From the NCBI GenBank assembly GCA_947650285.1, contig CANTFL010000090.1:930001-994000 (forward strand): a DNA stretch of 64,000 bases, read 5' to 3'. The position numbers and the translations under genes are program-made. Under the pieces are notes generated by a model. It had not been told where the DNA came from. It saw only the letters and a list, made by a program, of their open reading frames with translations, and did no database searches. Source of the stretch: Hyaloperonospora brassicae. Lineage: Eukaryota > Oomycota > Peronosporomycetes > Peronosporales > Peronosporaceae. Shown one piece after another: positions 34,401-58,865 of this stretch. Numbering within the stretch: position 1 is the stretch's first letter; each line of letters opens with the position of its first letter.

Positions 34401-34847
34401 AGAGTGGCGTGCTTCATTACCCTTCTTGGTCGTTTAGCAATGCAAACGCGACATTTCTTATATCGTCTACTTATGTAGACCACTGATGGTGCGAAGATAC
34501 CTGATAGAGAGAAGCAGACTGCATTTTGCCGTTACGGGGTTACACAAATCCTCAAGAGTCTTTGGTCATTTTAGTACACCCGAAGATGGCTCGTGTCGCC
34601 TACTCGTTGTACCACACTGGCTTGCAATTAGGTATACTATTCGGATGCATCTCTGTAGCGAGGCGTGAAAGTGCAATTGTACCCTCCCCCGCCTACTGTT
34701 GTTCCTTTTTCGCAACAACAAGTCGCAGCTGTCGAACGAGATTGTGCTGAACTTCCACTTTCTCTGGTCAGTGGTCGTTCACAGCTGTTCATTTATCCGC
34801 CCGTCGCACCGAGTCCTGAGCGTATTTTACGTACGGACAACCAACCC
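31486..34847. other. Mixed-composition intergenic stretch
   Basis: AT-rich DNA interrupted by small GC-richer islands (about 31990-32560, 33100-33730, 34250-34840). One frame at 34665-34886 contains a proline-rich run and PPVAPSPERIL just before the Gypsy insertion and might be the end of a host exon, but nothing after the element continues it. No gene can be supported. Confidence 0.4.
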
Positions 34848-35238
34848 TGTAACGGGGCAGCCCGTTACATGAAATTGTCACTTTAAGGAAAGTGACAATA
34901 AAGAATATAAAGATGGATATTCTTTAAACAATATCACCAAAGTGGTGATATTGAAGGGTCGACCAAAGGGTCTGTTCATTGGTTGATATCGTGATGATAT
35001 CAACCCACCAATCGCCGCAAGACGCGCGCAATGAGTGGTGACGAGACGTCACCATACATGCAGTTATATTAGTATAATTGAATTAAGTCAAACGAAGAGA
35101 CAGTAGTTTAAAGACTTAATTATATTAATATAACAGTTCTACTTTTACCCTACCTACGCTTCCTCGCTTGCCACGTGTACGTCCGTCGGGGCACCCAAAA
35201 CCCTTGCGTTAAGTTACGCAAGGGTGTGCCCCGTTACA
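34848..35238 (+). repeat. Element A 5' LTR
   Basis: 391 bp, starting TGTAACGGGG and ending CCCCGTTACA, so its tips are inverted repeats of each other. It contains a chain of perfect hairpins, among them 10-bp arms at 34875-34884/34889-34898. Confidence 0.95.
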
Positions 35239-35240
35239 CC

Positions 35241-35250
35241 TGGTAGCACT
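35241..35250 (+). other. Element A primer-binding site
   Basis: TGGTAGCACT starts two bases after the LTR. It resembles the complement of an initiator-methionine tRNA 3' end (TGGTAGC...). The same site sits at the same spacing in elements B and C. Confidence 0.6.
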
Positions 35251-35282
35251 TTGTAGTCCTTCCAAGGACCACATCATCCAAC

Positions 35283-36438
35283 ATGAACATGTTGGATGAA
35301 GAAGACACCTTTCACGCCACGCGTGAAGGGTTTACCCATTTGAGTGACATCGAATGGGGTGCGGTAGAACGAATGAGTTCTACCGTAGGCGAACTCGTCG
35401 TTAGCACCATGTTGGAGTCTCTAGACAGAGACCAACAACATGCCGCTATTGCCAAGTTCATTCAGAATGAACTTGCTCTCGAGAGGGAGAAAGTAGCCTT
35501 GCTTCACCAGCAAGGCTCTCAACAGGCCGAGCAGTTGAGAGAACTCGGTGCTCAACAGACGGAGCTGTTGAGACAGCAGCAATTCCATGCTGCTGTGGGC
35601 GGGACGGCGCATGCGCGTCGTCCCGAAGTCATGAAAGTTGACATCTCCAAGTACAGTGGAGTCCCGGAGGACTCCCTGTTACTATGGTTTGTCGAACTCG
35701 ACAGAGCCCTAAGGGCTCGTCGCGTCGAAGATGAGCAAATGAAACTCACATTTGCTCAGACCCACTTGGCAGGGCGTGCCAAAACTTGGTCCCTGAGACT
35801 CGAGAGTAGCGACCCAAACGTGTTTATCTCGCTAGATGACTTCAAGTCCCGTTTCAGTCAAAACGTTTGAGCCGCCACGGGCTGAGTTCAGGGCTCGTTT
35901 AGAGCTCCTGAAACTCAAGCAGGGTAAGCGTGATGTGCACGCTTACGCACAACATATACGACTCCTTGCGAGTAGTATAACTGCTAACCCAGTACATGAA
36001 CACACGTTGATTACGGTGTTCATGCAAGGGCTCGCAGAAGGGCCCGTCAGGAGCCATCTGTTCCGCCTTGAGCTGAATACGCTTGAAGAAGCGATATCAG
36101 CCGTGGAACAGGAAGACTTTAGCATGAGACAGGCTCATGCTAGCTCAAACTCTTACCGTCCACCGAGACGACAAGAGATCGGAGGTCCAGAACCAATGGA
36201 CCTCTGCTATGTTGAGAGCGAGAGACCTCGCTCTTCAAACAACAAGCGATTGCAGAGGTGCAATCGCTGTCAGAAGTTAGGGCACAACGCATATGAGTGT
36301 AGTGCTCCACGACCAGTACCAAACAGTACTGAGCGAAACGGACGACCATTCGCCAGAAAGGGCAATGGGCGTGGATCCAGCGCTGTTGCGAAGCCGCAAC
36401 AGCGAGACGGACCATCAAAAAATGGTCGGGGTCAGTAG
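35283..36438 (+). pseudogene. gag: Element A gag, split by a +1 frameshift
   Basis: The 5' frame (35283-35870) holds the capsid-type retrotransposon gag region, with LLLWFVELDRALR and LAGRAKTWSL as family signatures. It stops just after SQNV. The protein resumes one base ahead (35836-36438) at FEPPRAEFRARL, and continues through TLEEAI to a CCHC zinc knuckle, CNRCQKLGHNAYEC, and a basic tail. Element B has one continuous gag across the corresponding point. The same break is present in remnant C, so it is older than element A's insertion. Either the family tolerates it through trans-complementation, or the ribosome skips a base in the A-run before ACGTTTGA. Confidence 0.85.
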
Positions 36439-36457
36439 GGGCGGAGCGCCCTACTGA
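36417..36457 (+). promoter_or_regulatory. Element A -1 ribosomal frameshift signal
   Basis: The heptamer A AAA AAT (36417-36423) is in register with the gag codons. An 8-nt spacer follows, then a 9-bp perfect stem, 36432-36440 with 36449-36457, closing an 8-nt loop. The gag stop TAG lies in the stem. The -1 frame is open from here into the protease. The arrangement is conserved in elements B and C. Confidence 0.75.
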
Positions 36458-39400
36458 TCCAGCAACCTCAAAGAAAATTGCAAATCTCTTGACGAAAGTT
36501 GCTCCAGATACACAATTATTGTGTGTCTCTGCACCTGGTGATGAGATATCACTCATCAACTTGAAGCTAAGAGTAACACACAGTATGTCACTTCGTGCCC
36601 TAGTAGACTGTGGGGCGTCGAACAACTTTGTTCGTCGCCAGTCACTAGAGGGTTGTAGGCTCAAGTTCGTTGAGCGCGACATTCCCCTCACAAGGATGAC
36701 GGTGCGCCTTGCAACAGGCGCATCGATAACCGTTGAGAAACGTGTAGTAGGAATCCACTACACGTTAGAGGGCGAACAGTACGATGATGAATTCATCGTA
36801 CTAGATCTGGATGACAAATTCGATGTCATCCTGGGATTACCTTGGCTCAGAAAGTACGAGCCAAGGGTGAGCTGGCAGCATCGATCCGTGAAGATGCCTG
36901 CCGCTTGTTCATCAGATGGCCATCTGATGAACATCTTGGAGCGTCCACAAGCGTGTGGATGTTCTGCGAGTGAGTGCGATGGCCTCACTTGCGGTACGGT
37001 CGTTAGCACGACTGCACAAGATCACAGCGTAGTTGATCACTACACTGTGGAGCAAGCTCCCGGCGGCTGTACAGATGTACAGGCTGCGCCGAAGGTCCAC
37101 CACTCGAATAAGTCAAGTGGACCGGGACATGGATGCATGCCTAGCGGGCAGAATCTTAGAGGAAAGAAACCTGTTGCCCCCAAGGGGCAACATGAAAACC
37201 CTAGGTCGACTGGAGAGTCGACCGTAGAGGATCGGTTCCTGACTGTGGTTGCACAGCCACAGTCGGAAGACGTCGAGGGAATAAGTCCCCACGTACTTGA
37301 GGAAGGAATTCCTCAAGAGTCGCTTGCTGAGGGACTAGGCCTTCAGCAACCTGTGGAAGCAAGTTCTCAAGAAGAAACAGAGACGTTGAACGTCTTGGTT
37401 AATGACGGATCAAGCGTAGGCGCTTATACTCTTGATGTGATTGTGCCTCCGAAGTTGACTTCGGAGATAACTCAGTTGCCAACGCTAGAACCGAAACGGT
37501 TCTTGCGTGATCTGCGTAGTGGCAAAGTCAAGCAGATCTGCATACTCGTCACAGAGGACGAGTATGTGACCGACATTCGGTCGGCAACAGTATTTGCTGA
37601 GAACGAACGGGTTCTCAGCAGCTCATCGATGGACGAAAGTGTCCTCGATGAGAAGAATCGGATTGAGCGATACGCGTCCCAATCCTGGGAGTCACTTCAG
37701 GCAAATCCTTTGTATAAGGATTTGATCGAATTCAGGGATGTGTTCCCTGAATCCGTACCTTGCGAGTTGCCTAAGGACAAAGGCACTCGACACGAGATCG
37801 AGCTCAAACCGGGCTCGAAGTACTGTGTCATGAAGCAGTGGCCACTGCCTCGTGAACAAGTACTAGCGATCGACAAGTTCTTTGCCGATCGCTTAGCAGC
37901 GGGACATGTGAGGGAATAAACATCCCCTCACAGCTCTCCGACCTTCTGTGTGCGAAAGGCCACAGGAGGGTGGCGGATAGTGCACGCATTAAACAAGTTG
38001 ACTGCTGCAACGGTACCGGATCAGACGCCGATACCGAGGAAGAACGTAATAATAGATGGTATGTCAAAGAGTACCATCTTTTCGTCCATGGATCTGATGG
38101 ATGGATTCTATCAGATCCTGATGCGTGAACGGGACGTCCCGTTCACGGCAGTGAGTACCCCCAGCGGGATGCTGTGGGAGTGGCTAGTGATGCCACAGGG
38201 GCTGAGTAATGCCCCTGCAACATTCAACAGATGTGTAACAAATCTGTTGAGACCGGTGCGAGACTTCGCACCGAGTTACTTCGACGATGTGTTCGTCCAT
38301 AGCCGGGCTACGTACGGGAAAGACGGACGTTGAAGTTCACAGAACTCACGTTCGTCAGGTTCTTCAACTTATGCGCAAGTATAAGTTGTACGCCAACCTC
38401 AAGAAGTGTATATTCGCGGCTAGCGAAATACCACTTCTTGGGTGCATCGTGGGTAAACACGGCGTACGCCCTGATCCCGAAAAGATCAAGGCGATCACCG
38501 ACTGGCCAGTGCCAGTCGATGTCAACGGACTAAGGAAGTTCCTTGGTCTAGCGGCGTACTTGCACAAGTACTCGCGCAACTACGCCGAGATGACTGTTCA
38601 TCTTTCTTGTCTGCTCAAGAGACATGTCAAGTGGCCATGGAACGCTGAGTGCCAGCGTTCCTTTGAAGGTATCAAGCAAAGCTTGATGCAATCGCCGATC
38701 TTGGCGATTGCAGATCAGGACAGACCATTTCATGTGGTCTGTGACGCCAGCGATTTCGCAATCGGCTGTGCGTTAATGCAGTTCGATGCAGATGGCGCGG
38801 AGCGCGTCATCTGTTATCAGTCGCGTCAGCTGCAAGCAGCTGAGCGTAATTACCCAGTGCATGACAAGGAACTCCTTGCCATGAAATACGCACTGGCTAA
38901 GTTTCGCGTCTATCTCTTGGGAGATAGACCGTTTGTTGTCTACACGGACCATGCGTCATTACGCACGGCCGTAAACAGCCCACACCTCTCGCAAAGAATG
39001 GCGAGGTGGCTGTCTTTCTTCGCGGAGTATAACTTCTCCGTGGAGTATATACCGGGACGACTCAACGTCGTCGCGGATGCGCTTTCGCGCCGGCCCGATT
39101 TCGAGCCGGACGCACAATCCAACAGTGAGGATAAGCCCACTGTTGCGACACTGTCAGTCAGTGTCCCGTCGTCAAGCTTACTTGACGACGTACGAAAGGC
39201 ATACGCGGAAGATAAGGATCTTCTGCGATTGATGGATCATCTGGTGAATCCATCCAGTAAATCCATGAGGGATTTACCGGCTTTGTACCGATCCTCATCG
39301 GATCGGTATAGTACACGCAACGGATTGCTGTACTATACAGCTGTTGCCGACGACACGCCTCGTGTCGTCGTACCCGCTCATCATGATTTGCGTTTGCGCA

Positions 39401-41333
39401 TCATGTATGAGTGTCACGATGCCCCAACAAGCGGCCATCGTGGTAGAGAAAAGACTTACCTCACGGTAAGTCGCGACTTTTACTGGCCCCGCCAGTATCA
39501 GTTTGTTCGCAAGTACATACGTGCTTGCGAAGTTTGTCAACGGGTGAAACCTAGTCCTTCATCCCGTGCACCATTGCAGCCTCTGCCTGTTCCGACAGAG
39601 TGCTGGCAGTCCGTTTCAATGGACTTCGTCTTCGAATTTCCCGAAGACGCTCACAAGAATAATGGTATTCTTGTGTTTGTTGACCGATTCAGCAAGATGG
39701 TCCATCTTGCTGCTGTCCCTGAGTCAATCAAGGCTCAAGGTTGTGCTCGTGTCTTTCTAGACACGGTCTTTAGACTCCACGGGTTACCCCGTGAACTCGT
39801 ATCCGACCGTGACCCTCGGTTCACGGCGGAATTTTGGCAAACCGTGTTCCGTACTCTCGGAACACGATTGAAGATGTCCACTTCTGACCATCCAGAAACA
39901 GATGGTCAGACGGAACGTGCGAACCGTGTCCTCGAAGAGATTCTTCGAGGATATGTCCACTCGTTTCCGAGTTGGAGCGAATTCCTGCCCATGGTGGAAT
40001 TCGCCATCAATAATTCGGTGCATGCTTCAACACAGCACACACCGTTTTACGTGAATGGCCTACGCCATCCACGAGTGCCCACCCTTATAGAGTGTGACTC
40101 TTGGATAAGGGGGGAGGGACTCGCTCGAGCAAAAACCGTTTTGGCTCTTGCTCATCACGTGTCGACGCAAACGTCGTCACGTATGATGCCGATGTCGATC
40201 AAGTCGACATCGATGAAGAAGATCATCTCAATAATAGCGACGACGCTATTATTGATTCGGATGATGATGACGATGCTGGTATATTCAGCATCGCCAACGA
40301 TTATGTCAGCGAGGAAGAAGACAACCTCGCTGAAGAAGAGAGCAATCTCTTAGCAGTGCGCACGAAGCGCACTGAAAGACAAAACAAAGAGTCGGCAGAG
40401 GACTTCCTGCTGACTCGAGAAGCGGTAGTCCGTTTCGCTCAGGACTCCATCGCAAATGCGGTGGACCGTCAGAAACGGAACGCAGACAAGAATGGAAGAG
40501 CAAATGTTCTTTCATTTAAGGTTAACGACCTAGTACTACTGTCTACGATAAACTTACCCGGACATTCAGTCACTAGTGTCGGCAGTAGTAAACTACTGCC
40601 GAAATACATTGGGCCATTTCGAGTGTTGCATCGCAAGGGCAATGCATACACACTCAAATTGCCACGTAATATGCGCACGCATCCTACGTTTTACGTGGGG
40701 AGGCTCAGGCCGTACCGTCAGTACGAGCCTTCTTCTTCCGATGGAGATATCCCCCACGTTCAAGAACATCCATCAAGCTGTTGCGTTCGCGCTCCAGACG
40801 ACCAGTCTGCTCGCGCAGATATGATACCTCGGAACTCAACCGAGATATCTCCCCGCGAGCTGTCGCCAGCTCGCCGAATAGGGAGCGGACATCCCGCTCG
40901 ACCTGTAGCTGCGCTGTGGCATAATCGGCGCGATCCCTCGCCCGATCAGCCTCGTGAGCCTTGCGGTTCTTCCGCACGGTATCGGTCAAAGCGTAGCGCC
41001 GGTCTCGCTCGTGCTTCAAGTCATCGCGCAATTCATCGATTGCGCGATCCATCTCGTAAGGGTCGAGATGGTGAACCGAATCATCTGGAGGAGGTCTTTC
41101 CTCCTCCACCACATCCTTTGGTGGATGCTCACGGTGATCAAAGCTTTCTATTGGAGCGTATCTTGAATCACCGTGACGATTCAGGATCAAGGACGAGCTA
41201 CCTCGTCCAGTGGCGGGGGTATGCACCCTCTTGGAACAGCTGGGAGCCCTGCTCTCAGCTGTTGATGGAAGTTGAAGGTCTCGTCCGCCAGTATGACGAG
41301 ACCCATCCGATGAGTCCTGTGGCCCATCGGTAA
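36432..41333 (+). pseudogene. pol: Element A pol: PR-RT-RH-IN-chromodomain, broken
   Basis: Protease shows the active-site variant DCGASNN (near 36610) and the ILGLPWL flap-side motif. The frame hits a TAA at 37917-37919 at the start of RT (after HVRE). It resumes in the same frame with SPTFCV and [11 protein letters not shown] and reaches the catalytic YFDDVFVHS near 38277. A +1 shift near 38310 leads to the rest of RT, RNase H ([17 protein letters not shown]), and the integrase HHCC finger and D-D-E core ([25 protein letters not shown]). A -1 shift at an A-run near 40130 leads to an Asp/Glu-rich insertion, the GPY/F module (KYIGPFRVLH) and a chromodomain (from 41121, [21 protein letters not shown]). 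Four lesions make a full Gag-Pol impossible without recoding. Confidence 0.9.
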
Positions 41334-42309
41334 ACACGCGCCCTAGGCGCTTGTAGACGGATTGCAAGTTTGCAATCGCGTCACGCATCTCAGCCGAGAT
41401 GTGTGCCCTTCCCCAGGGCGAATTTAGGGAGTACACATCCCTATGTGCACGCTGCGAGTTGTCAACACAACTCGCACAAGGGTCTCCCCATGTGAGGCAA
41501 GGAATGTCTGCCTCACTCGATAAACAATGCAACCGGTACCTAGCACCGGTTGGCGTTCGCCTTTCGAACCTGAGGCGTGTCGCCTCAAGTTTCTTGAGCC
41601 ACCCTTCTCGTCCGAAATTCTTTACGTTTTGGACGAACGCGTTCCACGCAGCCAAAAGCGATGTTTTGTCACGCTTTTGGTTGCTGTTGTACCATCGATG
41701 TCTAAGAAAGACATCGAGATAAAAATCTTCTTCAGCGCGAAAGTTCTTCGCGCTGGAACTCAAGCCGTGAAGCTCGGTTGCATCGAATAAGGGTATTCGA
41801 TGGTGTTGGCCTGTCTCGTGAGACAAGCTATTGATGAGCCGTTCGGGCAAACGCCACGGCTTCAACTCATCACGCTTCACAGTGGTACCCTTGTCGGTAC
41901 CACGGCTCCCAGATTGACGACGACTCGCGCCATCGTCATCACGCTCGTGCGAAGACGCACGAGCCGGCGGTGGTGAGGAATAGAACTCACCACCCTGATC
42001 ATCGTCATCACTGCCGAACAGACTGTGATGCAAATCACGAGTCCGTTCGTTCGGCAGTGGTCTTGGCGAATACTGAGGCGTCGCCGGTGAGCGAGACGCC
42101 TCTGGAGCATTGCCCGAGTCAGACACGTCTGACTCGCCAGAGTAGATGACCTCTACATCAGGGTCATCGTGCGCACGCGGTGTGATACCGCGTGCACCTG
42201 CAGCACCTGTTGCTGCAGGCGAAGAAGGGGCGGCAGACGACGAAGCGTCTGCCGCAGAGGCTTGCACAGCACCAGGCTGTGTGGGTCTTGAGTCACCTCG
42301 CATAGACAT
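40705..42309 (-). CDS. Antisense ORF of element A (aORF), 534 aa
   Basis: A single intact frame runs against pol. Residues 1-160 are disordered, rich in Ala/Ser/Pro and acidic runs ([16 protein letters not shown]). Residues about 165-325 look folded, with aromatic and Trp positions ([33 protein letters not shown]) and a Cys cluster [20 protein letters not shown]. Residues about 435-520 form a long heptad coiled coil ending with a basic KKKART tail. The C-terminal 209 residues lie antisense to the pol end: the coiled coil opposes the GPY/F-chromodomain linker. The start codon lies 131 bp inside the 3' LTR, inside a hairpin loop. The frame is intact while pol is not. Function unknown; a transposon-encoded nucleic-acid or coat-interacting accessory protein is one guess. 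Confidence 0.6.
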
Positions 42310-42428
42310 GTTAACTATGCGAGGTCAAGCGGAAAGTGAATGGAACGGACCCAACAAGTGCTCCCTGTCCCAATGGTGGCCAACGGGTGGCCTCCATATT
42401 TTCGATAGTCACACGGTGACTATCAGTT

Positions 42429-42439
42429 AAGGGGGGTGA
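42429..42439 (+). other. Element A polypurine tract
   Basis: AAGGGGGGTGA directly precedes the TGTAAC of the 3' LTR, the expected place for plus-strand priming. Remnant D shows a similar GGTGGGGAAGGA on the minus strand. Confidence 0.75.
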
Positions 42440-42830
42440 TGTAACGGGGCAGCCCGTTACATGAAATTGTCACTTTAAGGAAAGTGACAATAAAGAATAT
42501 AAAGATGGATATTCTTTAAACAATATCACCAAAGTGGTGATATTGAAGGGTCGACCAAAGGGTCTGTTCATTGGTTGATATCGTGATGATATCAACCCAC
42601 CAATCGCCGCAAGACGCGCGCAATGAGTGGTGACGAGACGTCACCATACATGCAGTTATATTAGTATAATTGAATTAAGTCAAACGAAGAGACAGTAGTT
42701 TAAAGACTTAATTATATTAATATAACAGTTCTACTTTTACCCTACCTACGCTTCCTCGCTTGCCACGTGTACGTCCGTCGGGGCACCCAAAACCCTTGCG
42801 TTAAGTTACGCAAGGGTGTGCCCCGTTACA
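42440..42830 (+). repeat. Element A 3' LTR
   Basis: 391 bp; I found no difference from the 5' LTR on reading through both. Because the antisense ORF begins just upstream, an antisense promoter in this LTR is the likeliest driver of that ORF, but no motif was pinned down. Confidence 0.95.
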
Positions 42831-44352
42831 CGTACGGATAGTACACTTAAATCCTAATGGGGGGCTGCTTGGTAGCATACCCAAACATTGTTATCTGTCA
42901 ACGCAGGTCGGTATGCCCAGGCTTCGCTGGCAACGTTGGCGTCGGCAGGTCACCACGTCTTGCGAGCTCGTGATGGAGTCTCGTAAGCACTGCCGTCGGT
43001 GCTGGTTGTTGCGGCAAAGTGCTCGGTGAAAACGTTTTGTTGTAACGCCTTATACATATGTCGATGTCGTCAGTGACAGATTTTTTCGGCGCGATGGACG
43101 CCATGTGGTGTCGGGAGCGCAGAGAGCACCAGCGCTCAATTGCGTATACGGAGCTGCAGGCATTTGAGCTCCTGTTCACCGTCGTGGGGGACATTAATCT
43201 TGCGATCGATTATCCGGTAAATACCGGAAGGTGATGGTTGGAGGGGAGTACTGTGCGGTATGCCGCTCAATGGTACTTGACGCTGCCTCACACGTAATTT
43301 CTGACGGCGCATAGGTAGGAATGTACCGAAAAGGCTCTGCACAGCAGACTTCGCGCTCTTACCAATAAAGTGCGTCGTTTGATCGGACTTGCGTATGTCG
43401 CGGCGTTGTCGTCGTCGTCGTCGTCATTTCGTCCATGAGCGTATCATGCAATCAGACCTGCTCGCTTCTCGTGTTGGGCTTACTTCCCAAATTTGCGCCT
43501 TTGCGTAACAACAGTCAAGCGACGGAGATTTATTATGATTCGGGCGATTGGACGCTTTTCTGGGCGATAAATCCCCCTCCGTGGGGTCCAGATCAAAGAA
43601 GGAAGGCCTTCTCGCCGCGCATGCGCTAACAAGGACAGCGCAGCGTGCCCAAACGGAAGAATACCAGCAACCAAGACACTCTGGAGTGAGGGGCATGGCA
43701 ACAGCCGTTGTCATACCCACCTGATTCCTGCTCTTTTACGTCTGCCTTCAACTCGCAGACCCCGACATGATACCTGGTCCACCGAAGCGAATTTGCCTAA
43801 ACCGCGATTTGATCGGACCCGTCCAGGTGCGTCAGCCGCCGTCGGGGTTGGTAGGAGAACGGCCCAGCGTTTCCCGCGACTTCAGCACCCTGTCTGCACC
43901 CGGATCGGAACCCCGATTGTTCGTGCCCTATCGGAATGCCTTCCGTGCCCAATGTCTCGAGCCAGAGAGACGGAGCATGAAGTCGATTCAGTAGAAACAC
44001 ACCAATATATTAACTATCTTTGAGCACCTGCTCGACGCTCTGGTTCAATCTCTCTCCCCGAGTCGGGCTTCGGGGCCACAGCTACCAAAGGACAAAGATC
44101 GCGCAAGAGTCGGCAGACTGGGCTTTTGAACTCGGCTGGAAGGTCCAGCTCGTCGTCTTGAGCTGGCAGAAAAAAGCCAGCGAGGAGGCGAGCGATGTAG
44201 CTTTGCTTGAAGAAGAGCGAAGCAAATCTCCGTACAGACCTCTTGGTCGTCATGATGCGTCGTAGCCAGTCCGATCCTCTCTTTGGGTGAGACCTGCTCA
44301 ATCCGATAGCTAAAACATTGGTCGAGAAGCTCCAAGCGCTGCTCCCAGCACG
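42831..44352. other. Host DNA between element A and effector 2
   Basis: Contains the diverged repeat at 43480-43985 and no frame with a recognisable product. A CGT/CGTC microsatellite run lies near 43405-43425. Confidence 0.5.
43480..43985 (+). repeat. Diverged repeat shared with 20697-21250
   Basis: Second copy of the segment described at 20697-21250. It ends about 370 bp before the initiator motif of the second effector candidate, so part of it could lie in that gene's regulatory region. Confidence 0.5.
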
Positions 44353-45284: not shown

Positions 45285-46060
45285 AACAAAGGTAATGCAT
45301 GTTGTTGAGCCAGTAGCAAGTGCGAGCGTGTACCTCGTATTGTTCTTTCTGCTTAGCTCGTCCATATTGTTTTGTCGTCGAGACACGAGCGACTAGTTGC
45401 ATGTTTGTCTACTCTACAACGCCTGCAATTGCGGGGTACGGTGTGTCGATGATGCAAGACGTTCAGAATAGTGACTGCATACCTCAACATGTTGAGCCAA
45501 CACACGCGCGCACTGTGCAGTAGTGTATCGTAGATGATGACATAATGATTTCGTTTGCCCTAACCTGACTATTGTCTAACAAAGCGAAGGATAGACACGC
45601 TGCGTCTGCTGCATGTCCCTATTGCTGCCGCGCCTTACTGTCATGGCTGAAACAAATGTCTCTTCTGTTCGCATCTGCGCCTGTCACCTGATTGTCAAGG
45701 TGCCATACTAGAGAGAGGTCAGATCGTCTATCAGAGCTACTTATCACTCGTAAGGTGTATGTCAGGTCTCAAAGATGACATGTCCGATCTTGTGGTCATT
45801 CGCCCCGACCCTGAGCTAAACTCATCATTTCTCAAGAATAAGGGAGAGGCTAAATACACCGGGCATTATTGCTAAATACACCGCGCGCCTAACCATTAGA
45901 CTTAATGTTCAAATTACAACAGTGGTATCACATCCAGACCACGTCAATTCGAATAATAACGTATAAGCCAAGTAGAAATGCACCTGAAACATAGCCAAGC
46001 TACGCTAATTTAAAAAAAATACTTAATAAGGTAACTGAAAATGCACCCGCGGCTTAACAT
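45285..46060. other. Intergenic stretch, nothing recognised
   Basis: Short overlapping frames only; a run of A near 46011 and AT-rich sequence follow the effector gene. Confidence 0.4.
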
Positions 46061-46471
46061 TTAATCACATATCGTAGGTTGAGGAGTACGGATAACTGCG
46101 ATGTCGCAAGAGGAAGTTGACGCCGTGTCAATGGTACCTGGGGCATCAACGGAGACTTTACGGTCTAAAAAGGCTGAAATGTCCGACAAAAAAAGATAAT
46201 CACCTGCTGTATGTGACTTCAACACGCACACATATCCGTAGAGTAGCTCCATCTTGATGCATCTGGACGACCTTAAAATTAATATTGTCAATCTATCCCG
46301 TCGCGCCGCCGGTAGCGCTGAGAGCATGGTCTTGATGATACAACGGAAGTGACCGGTCGGGGAGTTGCTCACACAAAGCGTTGACCAGGCACTTTCTTCT
46401 GGGGCGTACTCGTCATACATGGTCACGAGCTCGTATGAACGGCCGACCTTTTTTGTTCCGCGATCTCGCAT
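46061..46471 (-). CDS. Hypothetical ORF next to an LTR, 136 aa
   Basis: An open frame with protein-like composition (MYDEYAPEESAW, LTILILRSSRCIKMELLYGYVCVL) but no family I recognise. It starts 15 bp from the proposed LTR edge at 46486, so it could be the 3' part of a host gene cut by that insertion, or chance. Confidence 0.2.
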   Translation of the reverse strand: MRDRGTKKVGRSYELVTMYDEYAPEESAWSTLCVSNSPTGHFRCIIKTMLSALPAARRDRLTILILRSSRCIKMELLYGYVCVLKSHTAGDYLFLSDISAFLDRKVSVDAPGTIDTASTSSCDIAVIRTPQPTICD

Positions 46472-46485
46472 TGACGTGAAACGAC

Positions 46486-47019
46486 TGTAGCGGAGCTACA
46501 CAGCTCCTCAAGTCAGAGGAAGACTTAACGCTCTTACGAGCAACTTTGGTTCTACGAACCTGACTCAAAGAGTCAACAGCTCCGAGAGCTAAGGTTTGGT
46601 TCAAAGAACCCGACTCAAAGAGTCAACAAGCTCAAAGAGCTTACGGTCCCTGTTCCAGGGGGACCAAACGATTCAAAGAATCAATCGCACTAAGTGCACA
46701 AGGAGTAGCTGCCTTATCAAGGCGTTGCTACTTCCTTACGATCGCAAGACGCCTCAGAGAGGCACGTGTCTTTTGTTGACCAAAATGGGAACTGAATTTT
46801 ATTTCTTCTTTTGACCCAAAACAACACCGTAAAACAAAGTAAATAACCTACTCACTTATGTCCTAAATAAACCTATTATAAGATCTTGTAATCAATTGTT
46901 GACAGACATCAGTCTTCAACAATTGATACTTGTATTCTACTATTATTTTAAAGAGGATCCCATACCTTGTGTGTACCAAACATATTGTCGACTACCAGTC
47001 GACGTGTAACCCCGTCACA
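46486..47019 (-). repeat. Remnant D 3' LTR (proposed limits)
   Basis: On the minus strand the sequence after a purine tract begins TGTGACGGGGTTACA (tip at 47019). A matching terminus TGTAGCGGAGCTACA on the plus strand at 46486 gives 534 bp. The tract is filled with short hairpins such as GACTCAAAGAGTC, GATTCAAAGAATC and GCACTAAGTGC. The second copy is absent, so the 46486 edge is inferred. Confidence 0.5.
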
Positions 47020-47128
47020 TCCTTCCCCACCAGACTGACGTTTCCACAAAACGTCACTCGAACTCTTTCCTCGAAGAGGACGGTGTGTGTGCGCTTCAAC
47101 CTCACGGTTGGCAAAACACAAAACACTA

Positions 47129-48305
47129 TGGCATCGCCACCCCATGAGTCCTCGACTCTCTCGTCTTACCTCGGCATCGATGTAAAGGTTAATTATGGTA
47201 TCGATACCGATATCGATGGTGACGAGAGGACAATGTCCGACGCTTCAGTGCAAGAGGCAGCGCCTCATATTGCACCAAACCCATTTGACGAGAGTGGCGA
47301 AGCCAACGCGCCATCGGCGCCGCATCAAACACTTCTTGTGGGCGATGCCATAATTTACTAATCCGCTTGATGAGCAACAAGAGTTGGATATCCAGCGAGA
47401 GGAGAGCGCTCAGCGCCGTATGAAGCTTGCTGCAACCCTTGAGGGTCGTCTTGACTATCTGTTCACACCACTCAGTGGGGAAGAGCGTATTCGTCAAACG
47501 ACGGGTCGTTCTTTCGCAACGTGGGCCATTGGCGCTGAGCCAACATCTAATGATAAAGTGGCGAGTCGACAGGCACTTCGTGAGAGGTACCTACAACCCC
47601 ACTTGACGACTCAAAGTCAATACAAGTTGCGACTTGACACGCAAGCACGGGGTGCACCGGTTCTACCGATGAAGGGTATACCCATCCTCTTATTCGCAGG
47701 CGAATCTCGGGAGGAAGAAGACAACGCTTTTGTTCGTTGGGTGCATCGGAAACGACACCTCAGCAGCGTGTTAGCTCTCAGAGCAAGTGCCGATGTGGTA
47801 GATGTTCGTCTAGAACGAAAGCTTCGAAAGATGACGCCAAGCTTAAGGCCAGAGGTCATTTGCGAACTCGCACACGCTATGCCCCGGCTGTGCCGATTGA
47901 GTGGGTGTTGGTCAAGCGGGACCCAACAACCCACCTGCCTCCACCACTATTGGTGAGAAGCGCTCTCGGTCGAGAGATGACCCCTGCCACGATGTTCAAA
48001 ACCATCAACGGCGTATGGGCAATCCTGCCGCAGGGGTGTCTCAAACTCCCACGAGTTCTCCGACTCCGGGTACCCTCGCCACTTCACCAGATACTGGTAT
48101 TGACCCTGACGACGACGTCGTTTCAGGAGTCGCTCCACATGGAACTGGCGGTTCCCTTGCTCATCGAGCATCGTTGGAGGTGGTCGGTATACCGAAGGAG
48201 GAGCATGAGAAGATGCTTCTCGAGCTGATTGGTCTCCGTGAGACATTGGGTAAGCGCCAGAGTGCTTTTGACGCGATGCGAGACCGTGTCCAGGCGTCGG
48301 AGTAG
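47129..48305 (+). pseudogene. Antisense ORF of remnant D, in three frames
   Basis: Begins MASPPHESS close to the LTR, as in element A, with an acidic, disordered N-terminus. The frame changes near 47360 (after GDAIIY) and again near 47900. The middle part (47384-47956) has charged helical sequence (GESREEEDNAFVRWVHRKR). The third part ends with a coiled coil (EKMLLELIGLRETL, FDAMRDRVQ), again opposite the linker before the chromodomain. Similar layout to element A's 534-aa protein, with little direct sequence identity. Confidence 0.5.
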
Positions 48306-48885
48306 GGCCAAGCCCGGATGGAGGCTCAGCTTGACCTCTTGATACGGATTCAGCAACCGATGGCAAGGCCAACCTACCCGGCGCAAGCGCCTCTAAGTTC
48401 ACGTGAGAAGGATCCCGATACGGATTAAGCAATCCAACGTAGAACACGGGGTGTGTGCGCAGTTTGCGCGGGAGGTTGAGCGTATACGCAAGTCACTTCT
48501 TGGCGAAGACCGTTAATGGTCCAATGAAGCGCGGGCGCAACTTTGTTTGGAAGACGGCGGACAATACATTTGTAGGTAGGTTTTTAGCATTGAGTAGAAC
48601 TTGGTCTCCGACCTCATAACTTATAATACAATTTCTGCCTTTAGCATCAGCGTGTTCCTTCTGTTTGTCTTGGCTATCAGCCAGTGCGTCACGCACAAGT
48701 CGTAAGACATTCAATTGCGTTGCGAGAAACTCGCTTACCTGTTTTTGAACAGTAGAAGGGCTGATATCAGCAAGCCGATCGGCAACTCCTCCCCCACCAA
48801 GCTCTGAACCACGCAGTGGTAGCGTTAATGGAACGCGAGGGTGTGTGAGACCATTCACATCAAATGGTGTGTAGCCGGCCGTGGG
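47947..48885 (-). pseudogene. pol: Remnant D integrase C-terminus and chromodomain
   Basis: From 48885 downward: YTPFDVNGLTHPRVP of the integrase, then a helical region and the GPY/F module RFIGPLTVF (48493-48858). A frameshift follows, and then the second frame (47947-48447) gives HPVFYVGLLNPY, a proline-rich linker, and a chromodomain FHVERLLKRR...YLVKWRGYPESENSWE. All upstream pol is missing. Confidence 0.8.
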
Positions 48886-49290
48886 TTAAGGGAAGGGGAA
48901 TAGATTGAACGAATACCGCTTGTCTCTTGCTTACGCATTACCGCACACGCCTTTACGTTTGATGCCGATGTCAACAATGTCGACATCGAAGAAGGCGAGC
49001 TTAATAGTAGCGATGAAGGTACTGCTTTATCAGACAGTGATGAAGATGCTGGTATGCTAATAATCATTAATGACTGTGCCAAAGAGTTCAATTATACTAT
49101 CGCTTAGAAGAGAAAGACCTCTTAGTAGTGCGGAAAAAGCTCACTGAAAGACAAAGTGTTAAGTTAGCGGAAAACTTCCCATTGTTGACATCGGCATCAA
49201 ACGTAAAGGCGTGTGCGTTAATGCGTAAGCAAGAGAAAAGCGGTATTCGTTCAATCTATTTTCCTTCCCTTAACCTATTTTCATTCTGTA
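48885..49290. repeat. Snap-back inverted duplication of integrase linker
   Basis: Arms of about 105 bp at 48885-48990 and 49187-49290 are reverse complements with a few mismatches (shared GAACGAATACCGCTTGT, CACACGCCTTTACGTTTGA, CCGATGTCAACAATG). Between and including the left arm the plus strand reads element-A-type integrase linker, while the surrounding remnant C reads on the minus strand. Confidence 0.85.
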
Positions 49291-49299
49291 TTAGACCGG

Positions 49300-50861
49300 G
49301 AATACCTGAGTGGCGTACGCTAATCACGTAAAGCGACGTATGCGTTGTAGATGCATGCACGGAGTTGTTCATGGCGAATTAGACGATCGGCGAGAAATCA
49401 ATTCAACTCGAAAACGAGTGGACGTATCCTCAAAACATTTCTTCGAGGACGCGGTCGGCACGTTCTGTCTGACCATCTGGTTAAAGATGGTAAGAAGTTG
49501 ACATCTTTAACCACTTTTTCATTGTGCGAACACGGATTGCATAAAAATCGCCGTTGAACCGAGGTATTGATCCGAGACTAGTTCACGGACTAAGCTATGG
49601 AGGCGAAACACCGTGTCGAAGAATGCACGCACACATCCGTATAAAACGACCTGCTTGGGGGTAGCAGATAGTGGCTTCTTTTTGCTGTAAAGATCCACTG
49701 ATAGCGAGAGTTGTAGCTGTTTATGGCCCTGCGTAATGACGAATAGTCCGTACATATGATAAACGGTCTATTTTTCAGATGATAGACGCGAAACTTAGCC
49801 AGTGTGTACTTCATGGCAAGGATTTCATTGTCATGAACTAAATAATTGCGCTCAGCTATTTGCAGCTGACGCGATTGATAGCAGATGACGCGTTCCGCGC
49901 CATCTGTGTCAAATTGCATCGACTCACAGCCTACGCTTGATCCGTCATCTCCAAATACGTGTAACGTCTCGGTTTCTTCCTGGTATTTTAATTTTACAGG
50001 TTGCTGAGGTCCTATTCCCTCAGCATAAGACTCTTGAGGAGTTCCTTTCTTACGCACGTGGTGACTTATTCTCTCGACGTCGTCTGACTGTGACTGTGCA
50101 ACCACAGCCAGGAACTGTCCCTCTACAGTCAACTTTTCAGTCGACCTAGAATGACCGTGTTACCCTATGGCAACAACATGTTTCTTACTTCTAGAATTTT
50201 TTCCACTAGGCTCATATCCATTTCCCGATCACCTCGACTTATTCGGGTGGTGGACCTTCGGTGCTGCCTATACATCTGCACAGCCGCCGGGAGCTTGCTC
50301 CACAGTTTAGTATTCATCTTCACAGCCATCTTGAGCAGTCTTGCTTACTACCTTACCGCAAGTGAGGCCATCGCACTTACTCGCAGTACATCCACACGCT
50401 TGTATACGCTCCAAGACATTCATCAGATGGACATCTGATGAACAAGCGGCAGGCGTCTTCGCGGATCGATGCTGCCAGCTCACTCTTGGTTCGTACCTTC
50501 TGATACAAGGTAATCCCAGGATGACATCAAATATGTCATCCAGATCCAGTAACAAGGTAGTGGTCATCGTACTGTACGCCCTCTAACGTGTAGTACTTCC
50601 TACTACACGTTTTGCAACGGTTATCGATGCGCCTGCGGCGAGGCGCACTGTCGTCCTCGTTGAAGTGATTTCGCGCTCAACGAACTTGAGCCTACGACCC
50701 TCTAGTGACTGGAGACGAACAACTTTGTTCGACGCCCCACAGTCTACTAGGGCACGAAGCGACAAATCATTTGTCGCTTCCAAATTCAAGGTGATGAGCG
50801 AAACGTCATCACCAGGTGCAGAGACACACAATAATTGTGTATCTGGAGCAACTTTCGTCAA
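49300..50861 (-). pseudogene. pol: Remnant C pol with RT deleted
   Basis: Protease is in two frames (50583-50861 with DCGASN; 50307-50567 with LGLPCIRRY). The linker frame (49590-50132) runs through DDGSSVG and then jumps straight into RNase H at MQFDTDGAERVICYQSRQ. In element A these points are 1.36 kb apart, so the whole RT is missing without loss of frame. Integrase fragments follow (VFRLHSLVRELVSDQ; a decayed TERA..VLEE region near 49450). Confidence 0.8.
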
Positions 50862-50892
50862 GAGATTTGCAATTTTCTTTGAGGTTGCTGGA

Positions 50893-50933
50893 TCAGTAGG
50901 GCGCTCCGCCCCTACTGACCCCGAACATTTTTT
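50893..50933 (-). promoter_or_regulatory. Remnant C -1 frameshift signal
   Basis: Minus-strand A AAA AAT (50927-50933), 8-nt spacer, 9-bp stem 50910-50918 with 50893-50901. Arms match those of element A. Confidence 0.7.
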
Positions 50934-52066
50934 GATGGTCCGTCTCGCTGATGCGGCTTCGCAACAGCGCTGGACCCACGCCCATTGCCTTTTCTGGCAA
51001 ATAGTCGTCCATTTCGCTCAGTACTGTTTGGTACTGGTCGTGGAGCACTACACTCATATGCGTTGTGCCCTAACTTCTGACAGCGATTGCAACTTTGCAA
51101 TCGCTTGTTGTTTAAGAAGCGAGGTCTCTCGCTCTCAACATAGCAGAGGTCCATTGGTTCTGGACCTCCGATCTCTTGTCGTCTCGGTGAACGGTAAGAG
51201 TTTGAGCTAGCATGAGCCTGTCTCATGCTAATTTCTTCCTGTTCCGCGGCTGATATCGCTTCTTCAAGCGTATTCAGCTCAAGGCGGAACAGATGGCTCC
51301 TGACGGGCCCTTTTTTGAGCCCTTGCATGAGCACCGTATATAACGTGTGTTCATGGACTGGGTTAGCAGTTATACTACTCGCGAGGAGTCGTATATGTTT
51401 GGCGTAAGCGTGAACATCACGCTTACCCTGCTTGAGTTTCAGGAGCTCTTAACGAGCCCTGAACTCAGCCCTTGTCGGCTCAAACGTTTTGACTGAAACG
51501 GGACTTGAAGTCATCTAGCGACCTAAACACATGTGGGTCTCTACTCTCGAGCCCCAGGGACCAAGTTTTGGCACGCCCTGCCAAGTGGGTTTGAGCAAAT
51601 GTGAGTTTCATTTGCTCATCTTCGATGCGACGAGCCCTTAAGGTCCTGTCGAGTTCGACAAACCACAGCAACAGGAAGTCCTCCGGGACTCCACTGTACT
51701 TGGAGATGTCAACTTTCATGACTCCGGGACGACGCGCATGTGCCGTCCCGCCCACAGCAGCATGGAATTGCTGCTGTCTCAACAGCTCTGTCTGTTGAGC
51801 ACCGAGATCTCTCAACTGCTCGGCCGTTGAGAGCCTTGCTGGTGAAGCAAGGCTACTTTCTCTCTTTCGGCGACAAGTTCATTTTGAATGAACTTGGCTT
51901 TAGCGGCATGTTGTTGGTCTCTGTCTAGAGACTCCAACATGGCGCTAATGGAGATTTCGCCGACGGTAGAACTCATTCGTTCTACCGCCCTCAATTTGAT
52001 GTCACTCAAATGGTTAAACCCTTCACGCGTGGCGTGAAAGCTCTCCTCCTCATTTAATATGTGCAT
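50912..52066 (-). pseudogene. gag: Remnant C gag
   Basis: Three pieces: 51812-52066 (MHILNEEESFHATREG), 51480-51815 (capsid region, ending SQNV at the same stop as element A) and 50912-51334 (TLEEAISAAEQ, CNRCQKLGHNAYEC knuckle). The stop after SQNV and the +1 resumption match element A exactly. Confidence 0.85.
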
Positions 52067-52116
52067 GTTCGATGAAGCAATTGCGGTTGTTATACGGACT
52101 AAGAAGAGCTACCAGG

Positions 52117-52570
52117 TGTAATGAGGATCTGGAACAGGGCACCCGAACTACGCACTTACAGCAGCGCGTAGTAAGTTCTCATTGAATGCAGTGAGAACTA
52201 GTGACCTGTCAACGTACGTTCACGCACGCGTCCATAGCAAGACTAGAAACCAAACAACTTTGTTTCATTGAGGGGAAGTAAAACTGTTATTTTATATAAC
52301 TAAGCCATGTAGCTCTAGTTTCTCTGTTTGTCCTGGCTTATTTATATTAATATAACTAAACTCATGATGTCGTCTACTCACCACCCATTGCGCGCGTCTA
52401 GCATCAAATGGTAGGTCGGTATAACCACAATATCAACCAATAAGTAGACTTTTGGGTCATCCCAACAAAATCACTTTAATTATTAATATTGTTTAAAGAA
52501 TATTCAGCATTTAATTCTTGATTACCATTTCGCACAATGGTAATTTCATGTAACGGGCTACCCCGTTACA
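52117..52570 (-). repeat. Remnant C 5' LTR
   Basis: 454 bp between TGTAACGGGG (tip at 52570) and ...TTACA (52117). It aligns with the element A LTR at both ends and in TTTAAACAATAT but differs in between. The primer-binding site TGGTAGC follows two bases inside. Confidence 0.85.
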
Positions 52571-52770
52571 TAGTCAGCCAGCATTCATTCTCTGATATGA
52601 TTGCACACGTTCTTGTCACACTAGTCGCAATCACAGACGCGAGCAATTTCTTTTGCCACAATTAAAATTCCATCCGAGTCGAATGATGGCATTGGACTTT
52701 CTTTTTCTGCTTCGTCACGAATCGGCAGCATAAATAGACGCTTCATCATTCAGCCGATTGACGCTTTTGC

Positions 52771-53216
52771 TGTAACGGGGCACACCTTGTGTCAATTCAA
52801 CACAAGATTGTGTGCACCCGACATCACGTACACGTGGCGTGAGGAAGCGCAGCGAATTAGGCAGAAATCGAAAGTTCTTTTTAAAGGAAAAAGTAGAACT
52901 ACATTTAATGTAGTTATGTTTCTTAATGAACCATCTTTTGTCTTGAGCTAACTATATCGAACTACAATCTCCTATGTGGGTTCTTGATCACCGCCCATTG
53001 CGCGCGTCCAGCAGCGATTGGTGGTTTATCTGGTTAGTGTACCGTGAACATCAACCATCAGATGGGCAACCCATCAATGGAATATTACCCTCGAGGGTAA
53101 TATTTCTTCAACCTTACTCCTAACGAGTAACGTCAATTGAACATTATCTAAATAGATAATGTCCAATCTTTGATACAAAAATATCAAGATTAATGAAACG
53201 GGCTCACCCCGTTACA
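52771..53216 (-). repeat. Solo LTR with TTTGC target duplication
   Basis: 446 bp, tips TGTAACGGGG and CCCCGTTACA, minus orientation judged by the ACGTGTACGT...GGGTGC block at the 3' end that all these LTRs share. TTTGC precedes (52766-52770) and follows (53217-53221), a perfect 5-bp duplication. Formed by LTR-LTR recombination. Contains a 24-nt perfect palindrome at 53081-53104. Confidence 0.9.
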
Positions 53217-57442: not shown

Positions 57443-57769
57443 TGTAATGGGCCACCCCGTTACATAAGTAGTTTCGATTAAGTTTACATGTTACTTAAGT
57501 AGGGGTGTTACTTTCGAAGTAGCGAAAGTAGCACGTCGTACATTTTAGCTGGTTTAATGGGCTCAGTACCATTATTAGCCAGTAAGATATAGACACGTAG
57601 ATTGAGTGGCTCCCATGAGTCCAAGGGAACCATTCGTACTTAGGATGATTTTAAAAGACAAAATATAAACAGAGTTAAAAATACTTAACACCTAAGACTT
57701 GGGCTTTGAGCTTCCTCAAAGCGTTAGAAATAGTGTACGCTGAGTACGGGTTATTCTAGCCCCGTTACA
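57443..57769 (+). repeat. Element B 5' LTR
   Basis: 327 bp from TGTAATGGGCC to CCCCGTTACA. Includes hairpins such as TACTTTCG-CGAAAGTA. The 5 bp before it are TACAC, to be looked for after the 3' LTR. Confidence 0.85.
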
Positions 57770-57771
57770 CC

Positions 57772-57781
57772 TGGTAGCACT
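57772..57781 (+). other. Element B primer-binding site
   Basis: TGGTAGCACT two bases after the LTR, identical to element A, so the same initiator-type tRNA is the likely primer. Confidence 0.6.
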
Positions 57782-57795
57782 TAGTAGTCCTTCCC

Positions 57796-58845
57796 ATGCT
57801 CGAGTTTGGGATAAGCGATTCGTCGTACTTTGACGCTCCAGACGTGAGTCTGGAGCACGCGACTTTTCCTCATCTCACTGGTGTTGAGTGGGATGCCCTA
57901 AATCGCCTCGCGGCGATATCGGGAGAGGCATTTGTTGTGTCGCTGATGAGATCAGCGACTCCTGATGAACAGCGTCTCGCCATACACGACTACATGGCTC
58001 GCGAGCTCGCCGAATTCCATCGGCGAGGTTTAACTCCCTCGCGGACTTCACGGAGCGATGCCGTGAAGATGGAGACCTCCGCCTATTCTGGCGAAGGAAA
58101 AGAACGCTTGTCGTTGTCTCGTTGGTTTCGAGAGGTCGACATCGCTATCGCCTCGAGACTTCTCGAGGCTCCTCAAGCGAAGGTCAATTTCCTTCTTTCC
58201 CGTCTCACTGGGAAAGCCAAGGAGTGGGCCTTGGGAAAACTCGTTGTTGACGAGTTTGCGTTCCCCACTCTGGAAGCCATCCAGAGTGACCTTCGACTCG
58301 CCTTCGAGCCGCCCCAGGAAGAGAAGTTGGTGCGTTCAAGGTTCCTGTCCCTGCGACAGGGTAAGATGTCCATGCGCGACTACGTGCAGATGGCTCGACA
58401 TCTGGCGTCTTGTATTGTCACGCATCCCATGGACATGTATACACAAGTGAACGTGTTTGTCGATGGCATGCGTGAAGGGCAGACTCGCCTCTCGCTGGAA
58501 CGAGCAGAGCCTGCCACGTTGGAGGAGGCTTTCGCTATCGCTCTCCGTGAGGATTTCAGAGTCACCAAGGCCTATACCAAGCCTTCAGTTGTTACCGCTG
58601 TCAGATCAGCGGGCCCGGAACCTATGGAGATCGATGCAATTGAGTCGTCGGGTGACCGACGACGCGCTACAGCCTACAAGGGCGACGTCCGAGGCGGACG
58701 TCAGATGATCTGCTTTCGATGCCGAAAGCCGGGACATCGCGCGGCTGAATGCCGCGCGCCAGCACCGATGTCGGTGCATGCGTCGGACACCCATCATGAG
58801 GGAGGTGCTCCGATCAGTCGTCCAAAAAACGGACGAGACCAGTAG
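57796..58845 (+). CDS. gag: Element B Gag, 349 aa
   Basis: The first ATG after the primer-binding site opens an uninterrupted frame. Residues about 95-235 are the retrotransposon gag capsid region ([35 protein letters not shown]). A CCHC zinc knuckle [14 protein letters not shown] lies near 311-324, after a PEPMEID motif also found as PEPMDLC in element A. The last codons overlap the frameshift signal. Gag would form the particle and bind the RNA through the knuckle. The +1 break that splits the element A gag near LAFEPPQ is not present here. Confidence 0.93.
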
Positions 58846-58865
58846 GTGCAGGGCGCCCTACTGGT
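58824..58865 (+). promoter_or_regulatory. Element B -1 ribosomal frameshift signal
   Basis: A AAA AAC (58824-58830) is in the gag register (CCA AAA AAC). A 7-nt spacer follows, then a 9-bp perfect stem 58838-58846 with 58857-58865 and a 10-nt loop. The gag stop TAG (58843-58845) is in the stem. Slippage by -1 enters the pol frame, which has no start codon of its own nearby. Confidence 0.8.

What the first reader, a model, noticed from the sequence alone, without database searches (positions are those of the whole stretch)
34848..42830. Gypsy elements are saturated with short perfect hairpins, coding regions included
Read at the scale of 15-30 nt, element A is an almost continuous chain of perfect inverted repeats. 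In the linker between 37381 and 37760 I count nine with arms of at least 7 bp: 37381/37389 (7), 37447/37458 (9), 37487/37497 (7), 37509/37532 (7), 37541/37557 (10), 37596/37611 (9), 37622/37645 (8), 37703/37716 (8), 37730/37744 (9; pairs give arm starts). With equal base use and loops up to 16 nt, about 0.4 would be expected in 380 bp. The pattern continues through gag, pol, the antisense ORF region and the LTRs. Element B shows the same (58046/58061, 8 bp; 58150/58161, 9 bp). It is not apparent in the dehydrogenase gene or the AT-rich blocks. Codon choice is evidently bent to make local stems. Possible causes: selection for RNA or ssDNA folding, defence against or use of small RNAs, or repeated quasi-palindrome correction by a template-switching reverse transcriptase.
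Basis: seen in the sequence. Interest (0 to 1): 0.93.

Follow-up and report, generated by a model that had tools for sequence, protein, structure and literature searches.

The report
Hairpin-saturated Gypsy retrotransposons in an oomycete
Some jumping genes in this genome are written so that a small perfect hairpin can fold every 40 to 70 letters on average, inside their protein genes too and far beyond chance, with a hairpin size typical of each family, which points to a second, structural code laid over the protein code.

Summary
Confirmed and extended. All eleven stems checked are exact; element A holds 128 non-overlapping perfect stems (arm >=7, loop 0-16) against 6.8 in shuffles, and codon-preserving shuffles do not explain them. 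Outside Gypsy copies the window is near chance, as is one Copia piece. All four Gypsy families examined carry hairpins of family-typical size: A about 9 bp, B and F about 8, E (with D) 5. A and B share almost no stem positions. Arms change less than loops or surroundings in A and E. In A, C, D and one E copy longer stems are poorer in GC and folding energies narrower than permuted; B lacks this. Best reading: natural selection for local foldability, resembling genome-scale ordered RNA structure of RNA viruses. Template switching leaves footprints (four private loop inversions) but predicts paired changes that are rarely seen. Against: no consistent G-U preference, an antisense strand that folds as well, and near-neutral recent changes in B; the folding molecule is unsettled. 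My open-access searches found no earlier report.

The parts
34848..42831 (+). Element A: Ty3/Gypsy LTR retrotransposon with chromodomain, long-stem class (arms mostly 7-10 bp, loops mostly 3-6); frames of this copy are interrupted
   Evidence: (128 stems vs 6.8); 64 other scored places in G000 at 97-99% pol identity (a capped list)
34848..35238 (+). 5' LTR, hairpin-rich as well (6 stems of arm >=8 in 385 bp vs 0.0 in shuffles)
35283..36438 (+). gag region, two overlapping frames in this copy; gag domain, and a CCHC-knuckle match below Pfam's cut-off; 16 stems of arm >=7 vs 0.8
38287..40353 (+). pol frame: RNase H, integrase H2C2 and core; 31 stems of arm >=7 vs 1.7 (dinucleotide) or 1.98 (codon shuffles)
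40101..41333 (+). integrase C-terminal part with SH3-like domain and chromodomain; 13 stems of arm >=7 vs 0.9
40705..42309 (-). antisense ORF, 534 aa, no Pfam family, 11 protein relatives; its sense-free part 41334-42309 has 18 stems of arm >=7 vs 0.9
42440..42830 (+). 3' LTR, identical to the 5' LTR
49187..52852 (-). Element C: rearranged, decayed A-type copy (88.7% to A over 2.2 kb), long-stem class; 25 stems of arm >=7 vs 1.6 in 49590-52700
57759..64000 (+). Element B (begins at or before 57759, runs off the window): gag 57796-58845 and pol, long-stem class (about 8 bp, GC-rich arms)
46000..49000 (-). Element D: Gypsy fragment with chromodomain, related to the E family (88% aa over 205 residues), short-stem class (5-6 bp arms)

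Best explanation
The hairpins are a selected property of these Gypsy elements: natural selection keeps the single-stranded form of the element (most simply the genomic RNA) folded into a chain of small local hairpins, mainly through choice of synonymous codons, without caring which bases pair. Shown: the excess, its absence from the non-Gypsy sequence examined, the family-typical size, the lack of shared positions between A and B, the slower change of arms than of loops in A and E, and (in A, C, D and one E copy) the trade-off of arm length against GC. Inferred: that selection and not mutation is the cause, that RNA and not cDNA is the folding molecule, and the benefit (compaction for packaging, or shielding from host RNA sensing and small RNAs).
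For: Codon- and dinucleotide-shuffle controls. Loops peak at 3-6 nt and not at 0-2, as folding needs. RNA folding of 901 nt of A: -403.5 against -290.3 kcal/mol, z -11.3; two 400-nt pieces of A 46% and 50% beyond shuffles. Variants shared by two or more of 30 A copies fall in pooled arms 19 times of 131 where 31.2% of sites are arms (p 1.7e-5), singletons 57 of 217 (p 0.12). E: pooled arms 7.6% changed, loops 12.6%, elsewhere 11.8% (L063 vs L064, p 5.6e-6; three further, partly overlapping pairs p 5.4e-7, 0.0086, 6.3e-5). Compensatory pairs exceed every permutation in 2 of 6 E comparisons at arm >=5 (6 vs mean 1.0, maximum 5; 7 vs 0.8, maximum 5). Some stems survive saturation of synonymous sites: 6 of 20 F stems are fully paired in B, 5 of 32 the other way, four-fold identity 0.31. 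Arm length against GC: rho -0.35 (A), -0.26 (E copy L063), -0.41 (D), about 0 in shuffles, -0.67 (C); energy spread narrower than permuted in A, E L063 and D (0 of 500 each), in L065, C and L062. Positions not shared: 0 of 84 A stems fully paired in B, 2 of 32 in reverse.
Against: G-U is not clearly preferred over A-C. One-mismatch windows: A 26 vs 22; E copy L062 favours G-T (102, expected 53.5, vs 49, expected 44.9), L064 likewise, L063 does not (76/58.5 vs 59/45.5); B 3 vs 12 and F 2 vs 17 lean the other way, though windows can count one stem several times. Counted per stem, A copy L007 has 8 G-T and 19 A-C. The antisense strand folds as well or better in all but one F piece. B shows no energy tuning: rho +0.08, +0.38, +0.45 in three overlapping sets, spread ratio 0.91 and 1.10, and its recent changes are near neutral for stems (arm >=6: 7 gains vs 3.8 expected, 14 losses vs 18.2 expected). 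The GC trade-off is not significant in L062 (rho -0.15, p 0.12) or in A copy L007 at arm >=6 (rho -0.13, p 0.26), and one control, codon shuffles of the A frame, also had a narrow spread (ratio 0.72, n 42, p 0.01), so part of it may be compositional. At synonymous third positions alone shared and singleton variants of A do not differ (p 0.44). In 4 of 6 E comparisons compensatory pairs did not exceed the highest permutation.
Confidence: 0.58

Rival explanations
1. Mutational origin: the element's reverse transcriptase (or a host polymerase) folds back on short imperfect inverted repeats and rewrites one arm from the other, so that stems accumulate and are repaired without selection.
For: Stems are perfect and pairing seldom resumes directly beyond them (7 of 132 A stems, 2 of 66 B stems). 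Both strands are alike. Four private loop inversions, the footprint of switching between arms: B copies L060, L054, L057 and A copy L028. With reference copy L007 all 10 shared arm variants of A lie in the 3' arm while singletons are 23 and 26; 7 of 7 pair-making changes of the B core lie in the 3' arm; A against C in gag is 10 to 22: what rewriting in one direction would give. A few E stems differ by three or more bases between subfamilies.
Against: Copying should turn about half of arm mutations into paired changes, so arms would change as fast as elsewhere but in pairs (my inference). Instead arms change more slowly and paired changes are few: one compensated pair among 117 differences between A1 and the single A2 copy L067; 2-7 of 439-601 stem pairs in six E comparisons at about 12-13% divergence outside arms; 0 of 49 arm singletons of A compensated. 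Imperfect stems with one mismatch are also in excess in A (42 vs 7.0). The arm bias shrinks with other references (7:3, 7:3, 9:3, 8:2), is absent in B against its old copies (72:75) and in deep comparisons, mixed in E and reversed in L065 against A gag (5' 11, 3' 5). Dependence of arm length on GC is not expected from copying.
Confidence: 0.17
2. Dispersed packaging sites: each hairpin is a landing site for Gag, whose preference sets the family-typical stem size.
For: Family-typical stem class; gag domains in A and B, with a zinc knuckle over Pfam's cut-off in B and below it in A; hairpins in LTR and coding sequence alike.
Against: No recurrent loop or stem sequence; A and B have the same mean hairpin energy (-12.4 and -12.3) although their gag regions are only 28-42% identical in translated matches; antisense is equally structured.
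Confidence: 0.13
3. DNA-level function: hairpins in single-stranded cDNA, or cruciforms in the integrated DNA, are what matters.
For: Strand symmetry and no clear wobble preference; loop inversions need the hairpin to form as DNA at least sometimes.
Against: Five-bp stems of E and D have a mean DNA-parameter energy of only about -3 kcal/mol; E copies L062 and L064 tolerate G-T more than A-C.
Confidence: 0.11
4. Artefact of base composition, codon usage, assembly or reader bias.
For: None found.
Against: Dinucleotide and codon shuffles; many copies on many contigs; non-Gypsy sequence of the same window near chance.
Confidence: 0.01

Closest known systems
[quoted passage not shown] 12 passages seen by term search, one of them from the abstract)
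   Same: Many short consecutive stem-loops through coding sequence, excess folding energy over shuffles, pairings poorly conserved in position between relatives, paired sites less variable.
   Different: The carrier is an LTR retrotransposon. Energy excess in three pieces of A is 39-50%, against about 15% for the SARS-CoV-2 genome and 23.4% as the highest genome value given there; but the same paper gives local values of 35.8% and a peak above 50%, and I folded pieces, not whole elements. Here stems are perfect with a family-typical size and antisense is equally structured.
Template-switch mutation at inverted repeats (PMC8794818, abstract and Discussion read; PMC8604942, abstract read)
   Same: Loop inversions between arms, seen four times here.
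   Different: Paired or multi-base arm rewrites, expected if it maintained the stems, are rare here.
Dispersed packaging signals of RNA viruses (PMC6281560, search listing only)
   Same: Many dispersed stem-loops along a packaged genome.
   Different: No shared loop motif seen; Gag binding not tested.
Ty3/Gypsy elements with chromodomain in oomycetes
   Same: LTRs, gag, protease, RNase H, integrase, chromodomain; protein relatives in Peronospora, Phytophthora, Globisporangium.
   Different: Hairpin saturation was not found described in the searches made; DNA of relatives in other species could not be examined.

Membership tests
GORS | Folding energy of native sequence clearly beyond shuffles | tested here: met
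   Sense pieces: A 39, 46, 50%; B 13, 16%; E 11-17% (four pieces); F 4 and 20%; Copia 6%. Pieces only, not whole elements
GORS | Pairings not conserved in position between relatives | tested here: met
   0 of 84 A stems fully paired in B, 2 of 32 in reverse, though paired bases in A-to-B are somewhat above null (213 vs 188.3, sd 9.4); 5 of 32 and 6 of 20 stems kept between B and F
GORS | Paired sites less variable than unpaired | tested here: met
   for A and E; weak in B
GORS | Positive-strand RNA virus genome | tested here: not met
   LTR retrotransposon, many copies in a 100.56-Mb assembly; hence 'works like', not 'is'
GORS | Structure formed in cells | not testable with these tools
   needs SHAPE or DMS probing
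Template-switch generated hairpins | Spacer inversion between arms | tested here: met
   four private events, three in B and one in A; none in 1426 E copy-by-stem comparisons (600 with differing loops)
Template-switch generated hairpins | Arm homogenisation: paired or multi-base changes in stems | tested here: inconclusive
   paired changes rare; a few E stems differ by three or more bases and could be such events
Dispersed packaging signals | Common recognition motif | tested here: not met
   loops and arms not recurrent by count; no formal motif search was run
Dispersed packaging signals | Capsid protein binds the stem-loops | not testable with these tools
   needs cross-linking
Ty3/Gypsy with chromodomain | LTRs, gag, protease, RNase H, integrase, chromodomain | tested here: met
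   the RT domain itself was not hit in the pieces scanned, this copy's frame being interrupted; many listed relatives carry PF00078

The most novel reading that the evidence does not exclude
A lineage of oomycete Ty3/Gypsy retrotransposons carries a second, structural code: each family is held at its own hairpin set-point (near -12 kcal/mol per hairpin in A, B and F, near -4 in E and D), reached by longer AT-rich or shorter GC-rich stems, with individual stems turning over freely. If whole elements behave like the pieces folded here, it would be among the strongest genome-scale folding known in coding sequence, and the first found in an LTR retrotransposon as far as my searches reach.
Probability: 0.45. 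Interest if true: 0.92.

Novelty: new variant of a known kind. Interest (0 to 1): 0.82.

Why it matters
If selection holds thousands of bases of coding sequence in perfect small hairpins, something in the life cycle of these elements reads foldability itself. The families differ in hairpin size but live in one genome beside sequence that lacks it, so the cause (packaging, escape from silencing, reverse transcription) can be tested by comparison within one organism. It also makes the old question whether RNA stems are kept by selection or by template switching testable, since hundreds of stems exist in many copies of different age.

Tried and rejected
Composition and codon usage: rejected by shuffles. 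Directional rewriting of the 3' arm looked strong at first (10:0 and 7:0) but weakened with other reference copies and was absent, mixed or reversed elsewhere; kept only as a lead. Arm conservation measured from one copy's stems is biased (a stem must be intact in the reference), so it was repeated with stems pooled over copies. The B alignment mixed strands and was discarded and redone with oriented loci. Regular spacing of hairpins: none seen (CV 0.67-0.82). E was first taken as hairpin-free because arms >=7 were counted; one search corrected this. L069 and L070, fetched as other families, proved to be E copies, so only families A, B, F, E and one 1.8-kb Copia piece were examined; a random survey of the genome could not be made. 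Relatives in viral contigs and genome contigs: none. No relative's DNA from another species was seen.

Full report
Observation. In 37381-37760 nine non-overlapping stems are found against 0.37 in 500 dinucleotide shuffles; element A has 128 against 6.8. Bins of 1 kb show 8-19 stems in A, 8-11 in C, 5-13 in B, and 0-4 elsewhere. Codon-preserving shuffles keep protein and codon use and still lose the stems, e.g. 24 against 0.57 at arm >=8 in the frame 38287-40350. The SDR frame, two effector-like ORFs (labels by eye) and AT-rich bins are near chance; 15-23 kb is mildly up at arm >=7, 10 against 5.4.

The same genome. G000 (100.56 Mb, 898 contigs) holds the window. The A pol query scored 65 places, the window's own included, of 8719 candidates, at 97-100% identity. 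A B-family RT query scored 147 places of 5259 candidates: B copies, relatives at 76-93%, an E family at 66-67% and A at 65-66%. Between B and F, RT protein identity is 85-86% but four-fold sites agree at only 0.31-0.32: synonymous sites are saturated while both families remain hairpin-rich.

Family-typical hairpin size. With loops of 3-8 nt and codon-shuffle expectation, A has arms 8, 9, 10 at 12/0.4, 10/0.2, 12/0.1; B arms 8 and 9 at 12/0.3 and 7/0.2; F arms 7, 8, 9 at 5/1.1, 4/0.3, 6/0.2; E copy L063 has arm 4 at 128/71.7, arm 5 at 93/21.4, arm 6 at 18/5.6 and arm 7 at 2/1.5; a Copia piece, the SDR frame and one effector-like ORF show no excess. L069 and L070 repeat the E pattern but are E copies. 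In the window the Gypsy fragment at 46-49 kb, related to E at 88% aa over 205 residues, has 14-17 short stems per kb against about 3 and no clear excess of long ones (0, 2, 0). Loops peak at 3 in E and at 3-6 in A and B.

Turnover and constraint. A and B share almost no stems (0 of 84, 2 of 32; 0 of 34 and 1 of 20 in two pol pieces), although paired bases overall are somewhat above null (213 vs 188.3); B and F share 5 of 32 and 6 of 20. Within A, variants found in two or more of 30 copies fall in pooled arms 19 of 131 times where 31.2% of sites are arms (p 1.7e-5); singletons 57 of 217 (p 0.12); the contrast between both has p 0.011 over all sites but 0.44 at synonymous third positions, where numbers are small. 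In E, pooled arms differ by 7.6%, loops by 12.6%, other sites by 11.8% (L063 against L064; three further, partly overlapping pairs agree). Compensatory pairs are few; they exceed every permutation in 2 of 6 E comparisons. In B recent fixed changes are near neutral for stems.

Energy. In A, E copy L063, D and C, longer stems are poorer in GC (rho -0.35, -0.26, -0.41, -0.67), which shuffled stems do not show; in L062 and in L007 at arm >=6 the trend is not significant. The spread of folding energy is below permuted values in A, E, D (0 of 500 each), L065, C and L062; not in B, where rho is positive in all three overlapping sets, significantly in two (+0.08, +0.38, +0.45), and not significantly in F (15 stems, p 0.07). 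Controls from non-Gypsy window parts and E codon shuffles have ratios 0.88-1.06, but A codon shuffles had 0.72, so I hold this as support, not proof. Mean energies are -12.4 (A), -12.3 (B), -11.1 (F), -4.3 (E), -3.9 (D) kcal/mol by RNA parameters; the floor on arm length used for the two classes (7 and 5) contributes to the gap, but the arm spectra show two classes without that floor.

Which strand. Sense and antisense of A fold about equally well against shuffles (z -11.3 and -12.2; mean gain -39.6 and -41.1 kcal per 300 nt). G-T and A-C defects are equally common in A by windows (26 and 22), A-C commoner when counted per stem (8 and 19); G-T commoner in E copies L062 and L064; A-C commoner in B and F with the caveat of repeated counting. 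The folding molecule is therefore open.

Template switching. Four loops are inverted in place between arms, each in one copy only: L060, L054 and L057 of B, L028 of A. That is the published footprint of switching between inverted-repeat arms (PMC8604942, abstract; PMC8794818, abstract and Discussion). If this were what keeps the stems, mutations in the template arm should be copied to the other arm and arms should change as fast as the rest, in pairs (my inference). They change more slowly and mostly singly.

Relation to known things. GORS in RNA viruses shares the chain of small stem-loops, positional turnover and lower variability of paired sites. The cited paper (PMC7642675, passages seen) gives about 15% excess energy for SARS-CoV-2, 23.4% as the highest genome value and local peaks above 50%; A pieces here give 39-50%. 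It is not a GORS virus; it may work like one. Paper searches covered open-licence PMC papers only, and in their listings I saw no report of this in LTR retrotransposons; subscription papers and preprints are not held.

Noticed in passing
40705-42309 (-): A 534-aa antisense ORF over the 3' end of element A has no Pfam family but 11 protein relatives at 31-87% identity, two named from Peronospora matthiolae; it looks like a real, uncharacterised antisense-coded protein of these elements.
   Followed up: partly
34830-34837 and 42831-42838: CGTACGGA lies directly right of the 3' LTR and again left of the 5' LTR, there separated from it by ten bases: an odd target-site duplication with extra bases, or a rearranged edge.
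   Followed up: no
L060 pos 24, L054 pos 2452, L057 pos 3729, L028 pos 3538 (copy coordinates as printed): Hairpin loops inverted in place in single copies of B and A.
   Followed up: partly
L001-L030, stems of reference copy L007: Shared arm variants fall in the 3' arm far more than in the 5' arm (10:0, or 12:2 with arms >=6), singletons about equally; not repeated in most other comparisons.
   Followed up: yes
7153-7713 (-) and 22424-23002 (+): Two ORFs of about 190 aa on opposite strands with largely identical translations, apparently another repeat.
   Followed up: no
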